Source: a candidate division FCPU426 bacterium
GTDB taxonomy: Bacteria; Oederibacteriota; Muellerivitia; Muellerivitales; Muellerivitaceae
Direction: 5' to 3'
Length of the DNA: 51,236 nt
Assembly: GCA_030041545.1 (NCBI GenBank)
Contig: JASHNQ010000090.1
Span: forward strand, 1 to 51,236
The translations under genes and the position numbers were made by a program. Positions 30,021 through 51,236 of this stretch are shown one piece after another. Every line of letters starts with the position of its first letter. Position 1 is the first letter of the stretch. The notes beneath the pieces are model-generated. The model ran no database searches and was not told the DNA's origin. It saw nothing but the letters and a program-made list of their open reading frames with translations.

Positions 30021-30280
30021 GTTTTCAGTTCTCAGTTCTTAGTTTTAAGTTATTGAAGTTTTTAATCTTCGATTAAAAACATTCATCAACTTAGAACTCA
30101 AAATTTAGAGCCGGTAACAAAATTAACCTAAACCCTCGCCCCTTGCGGGAGAGGGTAGGGTGAGGGGTGTTTTCGCCAAGTAAAATCCACCCTCACCCCG
30201 GCCCTCTCCCCTCGAGGGAGAGGGGGATAGGCGTTAAAAACGAATTTTGTTACCGGCTCTTAAAACTCAAAACTGCCTTT
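30021..30280. repeat. Nested composite repeat (nuoJ-nuoK)
   Basis: Outer family B arms (AGTTCTCAGTTCTTAG... and CTTAAAACTCAAAACTGCC) enclose a perfect 18-nt inverted repeat, AGAGCCGGTAACAAAATT (30107-30124) and its complement (30243-30260). This in turn encloses family A sequence (CCCTCGCCCC..., about 30133-30230). Three nested layers in a 260-base gap; no gene seen. Confidence 0.85.
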
Positions 30281-30784
30281 TTAAAGTTTCCTCTTTGACA
30301 AGACAAGCGCGCCCACGATGGCGGTCAAAAGCACCAGGGAAAGCATCTCAAAGGGGAACAGATAATCGGAAAACATCTTTTCGCCCACGGAGAAGATGCC
30401 GCCGAAACCCTCCGCCAAGGGCGCCGGGGGCTGGGAGCCGGCTGGGAAAAAGATCAAGGCCACTGGAGCCAAAACCACCCCCCAAACCCCCGTCAGCGCC
30501 AATACCACAACCCATCCTTTCGCCCGCATGGGTTTCAGGTCGTCCGGATGGAGGTTCAACAGCATGATCACGAAAATCATGAGCACCATGATGCCGCCCG
30601 CGTAAACCAGGATCTGGATGATGGCCACCAAGGAGGCGGACAAAAGGGCGTAAAGGGCGGCCAGGGCCGCGAAGGCCGCCACCATGGCCAGCGCCGAGGC
30701 GATGGGGTTGGTGCGGGTGATGACGAGCAATCCCATGCCCAGGAGAACCGCCGCCAATATGTAGAAAAGAATGGCCTCTAGCAC
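30281..30784 (-). CDS. nuoJ: NADH-quinone oxidoreductase subunit J
   Basis: A 167-aa membrane subunit with five helices; the conserved third-helix region reads LVAIIQILVYAGGIMVLMIFVIMLL, containing the pi-bulge segment of family members. The start is GTG 30784, with GAGGTG about 5 bases upstream. Full length. Confidence 0.94.
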   Translation of the reverse strand: MLEAILFYILAAVLLGMGLLVITRTNPIASALAMVAAFAALAALYALLSASLVAIIQILVYAGGIMVLMIFVIMLLNLHPDDLKPMRAKGWVVVLALTGVWGVVLAPVALIFFPAGSQPPAPLAEGFGGIFSVGEKMFSDYLFPFEMLSLVLLTAIVGALVLSKRKL

Positions 30785-30789
30785 GATTC

Positions 30790-31085
30790 ACCTCTTAAAA
30801 GTTTTAAGTTCGAAGTTCTTAATTCTAAGAGACTCTAACAAAACCGCCGCAGACCCTCGCCCCAAATGGTGAGCCTGTCGAACCATTTGGGGCGAGGGTA
30901 GGGTGAGGGGTGTGGAAAACCCTGCAGTTGCCACCCTCACCCCATCCCTCTCCCCTCAAGGGAGAGGGAGATATTCCTTAAAAACAGGGTTTTGTTAGAG
31001 TCTCTAAGTTATTGTCCATTCCCATCGCCAATGGCGATGAGAATGACCAAAACTCATAACTTAAAACTCAAAACTGCGAACTCCC
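30790..31085. repeat. Nested composite repeat (nuoI-nuoJ)
   Basis: The 317-base gap holds no gene. Outer family B arms (about 30797-30827 and 31053-31085) enclose a perfect 18-nt inverted repeat AGAGACTCTAACAAAACC (30828-30845) and its complement (30988-31005). Inside are family A arms (30853-30917, 30931-30971) and a CAAATGGT...ACCATTTG palindrome (about 30863-30890). Confidence 0.85.
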
Positions 31086-50882: not shown

Positions 50883-51052
50883 TGAGTTAGGAGTTTTAAA
50901 GCCTCAACTCCTCACTTAGAACTTCTAACAAAACCACCAAATTCTTACCACAAGGTTCACAAAGGACACAAAGTAAGGCCTGAAATCGGGATAAAATCAA
51001 AAGATTTAACTTCGTGTACTTTGTGTCCTTCGTGGTGAGAGGGTTTTGTTAG
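50866..51052. repeat. Composite repeat interrupted by an IS element
   Basis: Family F sequence (GTTAGGAATCAGGAGTGATG..., 50866-50924) leads into CTAACAAAACC (50925-50935). Family D arms follow (50936-50978 and about 51008-51041), then the inverted GGTTTTGTTAG (51042-51052). The left outer arm continues inverted-repeat potential beyond 50925, but the right side stops at 51052, where the IS begins. Confidence 0.8.
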
Positions 51053-51064
51053 GTAGTATGCAGG

Positions 51065-51125
51065 CCGTTCCTCCGCCGGGGTAAAGTAAGCCCCGGCGTG
51101 AGTAGCCCACTCACAGGAGGAACGG
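51065..51125 (+). ncRNA. Three-way-junction structure in IS left end
   Basis: A perfect 10-bp outer stem (51065-51074 with 51116-51125, CCGTTCCTCC/GGAGGAACGG) encloses two perfect adjacent hairpins: 51075-51081/51091-51097 (GCCGGGG/CCCCGGC) and 51098-51103/51109-51114 (GTGAGT/ACTCAC). Only one base is unpaired at the junction. The closing strand contains the AGGAGG site of the recombinase. It may be an RNA (regulatory, or part of a bridge RNA) or a DNA end structure. Confidence 0.6.
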
Positions 51126-51126
51126 T

Positions 51127-51236
51127 ATGGAAAAGCGTAGCACGAAAAACAGGAAGGTTGGAATTGGAAAGAAAGACCTTGTGTACGTTGGTTTGGACGT
51201 CCACAAGCGCAGTATTTACGCGGCGGTGAGGGTAAA
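51127..51236 (+). CDS. IS110-family recombinase (partial, 5' end)
   Basis: Only the first 36 codons are present. After a basic start (MEKRSTKNRKVGIGKKD) comes LVYVGLDVHKRSIYAAVRV, the usual opening of the DEDD (RuvC-like) domain of IS110-family recombinases, including the first catalytic Asp (VGLDVHK). GGAGG lies 7 bases before the ATG, inside the outer stem of the left-end structure. IS110 versus IS1111 subgroup cannot be settled without the right end. Confidence 0.88.
   Translation, partial: MEKRSTKNRKVGIGKKDLVYVGLDVHKRSIYAAVRV

What the first reader, a model, noticed from the sequence alone, without database searches (positions are those of the whole stretch)
30107..31005. Nested elements defined by an 18-nt AGAG-N4-TAACAAAA-N2 terminal inverted repeat
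At 30107-30124/30243-30260 and 30828-30845/30988-31005 perfect 18-nt inverted repeats share AGAG....TAACAAAA while the N positions differ between copies yet stay complementary within a copy. That covariation means pairing, not sequence, is kept there. Each sits inside family B arms and encloses family A. A third copy (CTAACAAAACC, 50925-50935/51042-51052) sits next to family F and encloses family D. This looks like a modular, nested palindromic element.
Basis: seen in the sequence. Interest (0 to 1): 0.82.

Follow-up and report, generated by a model that had tools for sequence, protein, structure and literature searches.

The report
Mini-transposons nested in other repeats
The two inverted-repeat pairs are the ends of small hitch-hiking transposons that jumped into older repeats in a candidate-phylum (FCPU426) bacterium; they wrap a hairpin motif (BoxC) known from E. 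coli, which suggests one way that such hairpins could be copied around genomes.

Summary
The inverted repeats are real, but they are terminal inverted repeats (TIRs) of a transposed element, not a structure kept by base pairing. GAGNNNNTAACAAAA occurs 82 times in the 3.8-Mb genome, against 2 for the reversed pattern. Of 48 clean pairs, 39 are flanked by an exact 3-bp duplication, always TTA or TAA. Same-genus genomes have the uninterrupted empty sites at both nuo junctions, so each copy is a precise insertion of 152 or 176 bp into a pre-existing 'family B' repeat. The element ('T1') is a new MITE family, most likely mobilised by an IS5-group transposase; no autonomous partner was found. The N4 'covariation' is mostly a difference between two subfamilies (CCGG, ACTC); copies with D-type cores have mismatched N4 (0 of 11 equal). 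The third copy is a T1 whose right end is interrupted by an IS110-type element, which explains 'family F'. 'Family A' is an inverted pair of the BoxC/TMECO intrastrand-triplex motif. The same core also sits in two unrelated TIR shells, and T1 also wraps other cores. Two IS110-family elements are targeted to these repeats: one has a bridge-RNA-like loop matching BoxC, the other carries TTTGTTAG, which matches the T1 TIR.

The parts
30105..30107 (.). left target-site duplication TTA of copy T1-I
   Evidence: empty site in G001 (L215)
30108..30259 (+). T1-I element, 152 bp, TIR GAGCCGGTAACAAAATT, between nuoJ and nuoK
   Evidence: 96-99% identical full-length copies elsewhere in the genome
30260..30262 (.). 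right target-site duplication TTA
30133..30166 (+). BoxC/TMECO-like triplex unit (loop TA instead of N3) in core A
   Evidence: against the consensus in PMC4666352
30190..30224 (-). second BoxC/TMECO unit (type B, CCG loop), inverted
30826..30828 (.). left target-site duplication TAA of copy T1-II
30829..31004 (+). T1-II element, 176 bp, TIR GAGACTCTAACAAAACC, between nuoI and nuoJ
   Evidence: empty site in G002 (L213)
31005..31007 (.). right target-site duplication TAA
30854..30909 (+). BoxC-like unit in core A whose hairpin loop is expanded by a further palindrome (AAATGGTGAGCCTGTCGAACCATTT)
   Evidence: length difference 176 versus 154 bp in sister copies
30934..30968 (-). BoxC/TMECO unit, inverted
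30027..30104 (+). family B arm (AGTTCTNAGTTCTTAG-type repeat) outside T1-I; present without T1 in G001
30263..30276 (+). short family B arm on the other side of T1-I
30800..30825 (+). family B arm outside T1-II; present without T1 in G002
31008..31082 (+). family B arm and loop palindrome on the other side of T1-II; present in G002 without T1
50916..50918 (.). TTA flank at the left of the third T1 copy
50919..51052 (+). third T1 copy (core D, CACAAAGGACACAAAG type), right TIR interrupted after TTTTGTTAG

Best explanation
T1 is a MITE family: short, non-autonomous TIR transposons of about 80-220 bp. The TIR is GAG-N4-TAACAAAA. Insertion duplicates 3 bp at TTA or TAA. Shown: multi-copy family, TIRs, target duplications, empty sites, and insertion into older family B repeats and into D-type repeats. 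Inferred: mobilisation in trans by a DDE transposase of the IS5 group (IS427/IS1031 type), with GAG as the cleaved tip, TAACAAAA as the transposase-binding part and N4 as a spacer. The equal N4 at both ends within a subfamily then reflects descent from a symmetric founder, possibly helped by template-switch correction of palindromes. The inside is a passenger: mostly an inverted pair of BoxC/TMECO triplex hairpins, otherwise other dispersed palindromes. The nesting is the order of insertion (B, then T1 with its core, then IS110 elements), not one designed structure.
For: 82 TIRs against 2 in the reversed control. 39 of 48 pairs chosen without reference to duplications have exact 3-bp duplications, always TTA/TAA (list). 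Empty sites at both junctions in same-genus genomes. 96-99% identical full-length copies at unrelated loci. T1 copies inside D-type repeats (L086, L146). The family is confined to family f1 and to FCPU426 MAGs. An IS5-group element (NF033580, 222 bits) lies in the same genome, with TIR GAACCTATCTCAAAA (12 of 15 positions as in T1 end GAACCTCTAACAAAA) and TA at both junctions.
Against: No autonomous T1 element was found, either among the own-genome DDE_Tnp_1 hits or in 7 relatives. The IS5 element in the genome has a related but not identical TIR, and TA rather than TWA at its ends. An IS1182-type TIR (GAGCCTGTCGCATAA, L096) is about as similar to T1-I, so the transposase group is inferred, not shown.
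Confidence: 0.9

Rival explanations
1. A nested hairpin with a cis function (RNA processing, attenuation or a DNA cruciform) in which pairing at the N4 positions is selected.
For: T1-I folds strongly as single-stranded DNA (z = -9.6). Both window copies lie between genes of the nuo operon. N4 is equal at both ends in 29 of 36 core-A copies.
Against: Congeners lack the element at the same junctions. Copies with D-type cores have unequal N4 (0 of 11 equal). An orthologous copy carries an uncompensated TIR change (L228). Arms beyond the TIR are no more alike than shuffled sequence in core-A copies.
Confidence: 0.04
2. The element is a REPIN/BIME-type repeat moved by a RAYT (Y1) transposase acting on the hairpins.
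For: The core consists of palindromic units singly or in inverted pairs, as in BIMEs. The genome holds 13 Y1_Tnp hits.
Against: The mobile unit has TIRs and a 3-bp duplication, as expected of DDE transposition and not of Y1 transposition (established knowledge). None of the Y1 loci fetched is flanked by the core pair; two show a single chance-like match.
Confidence: 0.03
3. The element is a MITE, but of another DDE family with GAG-type TIRs (for example IS1182) rather than the IS5 group.
For: The IS1182-type element in the same genome has TIR GAGCCTGTCGCATAA, similar to GAGCCGGTAACAAAA.
Against: Exact TWA duplications fit TNA-type IS5 subgroups and the related PIF/Harbinger elements (PMC4482050; ISfinder subgroup rules from memory). 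No TTA/TAA duplication is visible at the IS1182 copy.
Confidence: 0.2

Closest known systems
Bacterial MITEs in general (RUP, Correia/NEMIS and similar; from memory)
   Same: under 220 bp, TIRs, short target duplication, non-coding, multi-copy, intergenic, trans-mobilised
   Different: New TIR. Several unrelated palindromic cores occur in the same TIR shell, and the commonest core also occurs in two other TIR shells.
IS5 group (IS427/IS1031 type), element at L095 in the same genome
   Same: TIR 12 of 15 identical to one T1 end; A+T-rich target with TA/TWA at the junctions
   Different: TIR not identical; TA instead of TWA in the single copy seen; no T1 copy carries a transposase
BoxC / PIT / TMECO intrastrand triplex motif (Holder et al. 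2015, PMC4666352)
   Same: The core A units fit CCCTCNCCC-N3-6-GGGNGAGGG-N3-GGGNGAGGG (one exactly, one with a 2-nt loop), and occur as inverted pairs as in E. coli
   Different: That paper reports no association with mobile elements; here the pair lies inside MITEs with target duplications
IS621 and IS1111-type IS4321/IS5075 (IS110 family; PMC11208160 and its cited work by Partridge & Hall)
   Same: IS110-family elements targeting repeats or transposon TIRs; guide-like sequences in the left end (L328) or right end (L329)
   Different: The targets here are a BoxC core and a MITE TIR in FCPU426

Membership tests
MITE | terminal inverted repeats in many dispersed copies | tested here: met
MITE | target-site duplication at the insertion | tested here: met
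   39 of 48 exact TTA/TAA
MITE | precise empty site in relatives | tested here: met
   both window copies
MITE | no coding capacity | tested here: met
   paired copies 79-219 bp; no gene-length ORF listed inside either window copy
MITE | autonomous partner with the same TIR | tested here: not met
   none among DDE_Tnp_1 hits in the own genome and 7 relatives; draft assemblies, so absence is weak evidence, and a partner need not persist in the same genome
IS5 group (IS427/IS1031 type) | IS5-type DDE transposase between the TIRs | tested here: not met
   T1 copies are non-autonomous; an IS5 element with a similar TIR exists at L095. Works like, membership not shown
IS5 group (IS427/IS1031 type) | TNA-type 3-bp target duplication | tested here: met
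   subgroup rule from memory
REP/BIME mobilised by RAYT | units flank a RAYT gene and carry the tetranucleotide foot recognised by it | tested here: not met
   no core pair around the Y1_Tnp loci fetched
BoxC/TMECO motif (core A) | consensus CCCTCNCCC-N3-6-GGGNGAGGG-N3-GGGNGAGGG | tested here: met
   one unit exact, its partner has a 2-nt second loop
BoxC/TMECO motif (core A) | forms an intrastrand triplex | not testable with these tools
   shown in vitro for E. coli oligonucleotides in PMC4666352
[quoted passage not shown]
   GAGAGGG..8 nt..CACCCTA in the left end against target GAGAGGGTAGGGTG; 0 of 5000 shuffles

The most novel reading that the evidence does not exclude
Widely dispersed bacterial palindromes such as BoxC/TMECO spread because they sit as interchangeable cores inside TIR shells of lineage-specific MITEs (here three unrelated shells with different target duplications). 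The E. coli BoxC pairs, which are also presence/absence insertions, would arise in a comparable way. IS110 elements then use bridge RNAs to home into the cores and shells.
Probability: 0.35. Interest if true: 0.65.

Novelty: new variant of a known kind. Interest (0 to 1): 0.45.

Why it matters
How the conserved triplex-forming BoxC/TMECO motif spread through many bacterial genomes has been left open: its describers found no mobility genes near it (PMC4666352). Here the motif is caught as a passenger inside three TIR-element families, two of them with clear target duplications, and for T1 with empty sites as well, which gives a testable route. The two IS110-family elements aimed at these repeats are natural examples of recombinases that use multi-copy non-coding repeats as landing sites.

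Tried and rejected
(1) Pairing-selected hairpin: rejected on empty sites, unequal N4 and uncompensated decay. (2) REPIN/RAYT origin of T1: Y1_Tnp loci checked, no flanking core pair. (3) Autonomous T1 copy: DDE_Tnp_1 searched in own genome and family; only an IS5 and an IS1182 element with similar but different TIRs, plus a fragment. (4) Group II intron or known RNA at the contig ends that interrupt core A: no Rfam match; they are IS110 ends. (5) Spread of T1 beyond FCPU426: 17-nt TIR scan of 84,980 genomes gave 32 stretches, about 30 expected by chance; only the four FCPU426 ones are recognisable T1 copies; no phage match, plasmid matches only partial, mainly over the core. (7) Full-text search with core sequences found no relevant paper; the triplex paper came.

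Full report
WHAT IS THERE. The two perfect inverted repeats are at the stated places. Read against all other copies, the element proper runs 30108-30259 (152 bp, ends GAGCCGGTAACAAAATT) and 30829-31004 (176 bp, ends GAGACTCTAACAAAACC). Both start with T and end with A, so they always add one apparent A-T pair. TAACAAAA is enriched in the window (6 against 1.3 expected), and GAGNNNNTAACAAAA occurs 82 times in the genome against 2 for the reversed pattern. I call the family T1.

IT IS A TRANSPOSED ELEMENT. In the listing of paired copies, the flanks of most are identical 3-bp words, only TTA or TAA. Among 48 pairs accepted without looking at the flanks, 39 have the exact duplication. Copies of the first type are 96-99% identical over the whole length at unrelated loci. 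The decisive test is the empty site. In same-genus genome G002 the nuoI-nuoJ spacer reads ..GACAATAACTTAGAACCCAGAACTT.., where the window, read on the minus strand, has ..GACAATAACTTA-[176 bp]-TTAGAATTAAGAACTT.. In G001 the nuoJ-nuoK spacer reads ..GGCAGTTTTGAATTTTAAATTTTGAG.., where the window has ..GGCAGTTTTGAGTTTTAA-[152 bp]-TAAATTTTGAG.. The 'family B' arms are already present in both empty sites, so B is the older target. Its sequence is rich in TTA/TAA, which suits a TWA-targeting element. T1 copies also lie inside D-type repeats (L086, L146).

COVARIATION. Among 36 core-A copies, 16 are CCGG at both ends and 13 ACTC at both ends; the other seven have unequal N4. That is two fixed states, not repeated compensation. 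Copies with D-type cores have GAG and TAACAAAA largely conserved but N4 unequal in all 11. An orthologous copy in an FCPU426 MAG (L228, same site as L010) has an uncompensated TIR change. In core-A copies the outer 17 nt are 95% identical between ends and the next 43 nt 47%, equal to shuffled sequence. This fits TIRs under transposase constraint, with N4 as a spacer (inference). One 99-bp copy (L061) is a near-perfect palindrome made of one T1-I-like arm, which hints that template switching can symmetrise such elements (inference).

WHAT MOVES IT. No autonomous T1 was found. The genome holds an IS5-group element (NF033580, 222 bits) with TIR GAACCTATCTCAAAA and TA at its junctions, and an IS1182 element with TIR GAGCCTGTCGCATAA. 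T1-D ends such as GAACCTCTAACAAAA match the first at 12 of 15 positions. TWA duplications also occur in the related PIF/Harbinger elements (PMC4482050). I therefore favour an IS5-type transposase acting in trans; this step is inferred.

THE CORES. Core A is an inverted pair of the BoxC/PIT/TMECO triplex motif (PMC4666352). The same pair sits in two other TIR shells: T2, GGAACTATGNNCTTGGC (22 of 25 copies with core A; some flanks suggest an A+T-rich duplication of about 8 bp, read by eye), and T3, GGTAGTGNNTCAGTTT (16 of 19 with core A; duplication of 8 bp or more in 9 of the 12 copies listed). T1 in turn encloses other dispersed palindromes: D (CACCACGAAGGACAC type) and an ATCAGCGTTTATC type. 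Bare pairs and single units also exist. The shells and cores are thus separable modules. Whether cores enter shells or shells form around cores is not shown.

IS110 ELEMENTS. Two IS110-family elements (PF01548/PF02371) use these repeats. One (L328, 379 aa) is inserted at GAGAGGGTA/GGGTGAGG of the BoxC unit at ten distinct junctions seen (six left, four right), including in T1 and T3 shells. Its 217-nt left end folds stably (z = -4.4) and contains GAGAGGG-8 nt-CACCCTA, the expected left and right target guides (0 of 5000 shuffles contain both in that order within 30 nt). The other (L329, 356 aa) is the one that cuts the third copy in the window. Four of its five junctions are TTTTGTTAG of a T1 right TIR, and its right end contains TTTGTTAG, as expected for IS1111-type members with the bridge RNA at the right end (PMC11208160).

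TAXON. Only MAGs of candidate division FCPU426 carry recognisable T1-I copies in the named genome collection, and T1 is confined to the window's family among relatives searched, apart from single chance-level matches. The host is therefore probably an FCPU426 bacterium (inference).

LIMITS. Draft assemblies lose multi-copy elements. Some weak pairs were accepted partly because of their duplication, so the unbiased figure (39 of 48) should be used. Core labels are by short regular expressions.

Noticed in passing
L328:1263-2645: IS110-family element inserted in BoxC cores at many loci, with a bridge-RNA-like loop GAGAGGG..CACCCTA that matches the BoxC target on both sides.
   Followed up: partly
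L329:700-2072 and window 51053-51236: IS1111-like element with short inverted repeats near both ends; four of five junctions are in a T1 right TIR, and its right end carries TTTGTTAG.
   Followed up: partly
L319:420-960 against L324, L325 (E. coli fepB-entC): The E. coli BoxC pair lies in a 186-bp insertion absent from about half of the genomes; the boundaries allow a 3-bp TAA duplication. The hrpB-mrcB pair is also absent in some strains.
   Followed up: partly
L048, L035, L118, L082: Core D of several T1 copies holds a further inserted palindrome of about 75-78 bp (TGCCGACCTTCCATAAAG..GAATCGGC), a fourth level of nesting.
   Followed up: no
L213-L219 (nuoI-nuoJ and nuoJ-nuoK spacers of relatives): Several relatives carry a different palindromic repeat at the same two nuo junctions, as if these spacers were hot spots.
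   Followed up: no
L262, L263, L275, L311: T2 and T3 shells with other cores (CCCCCTTTGAAAAAGGGGG type, GTCATTGCGAG type).
   Followed up: no
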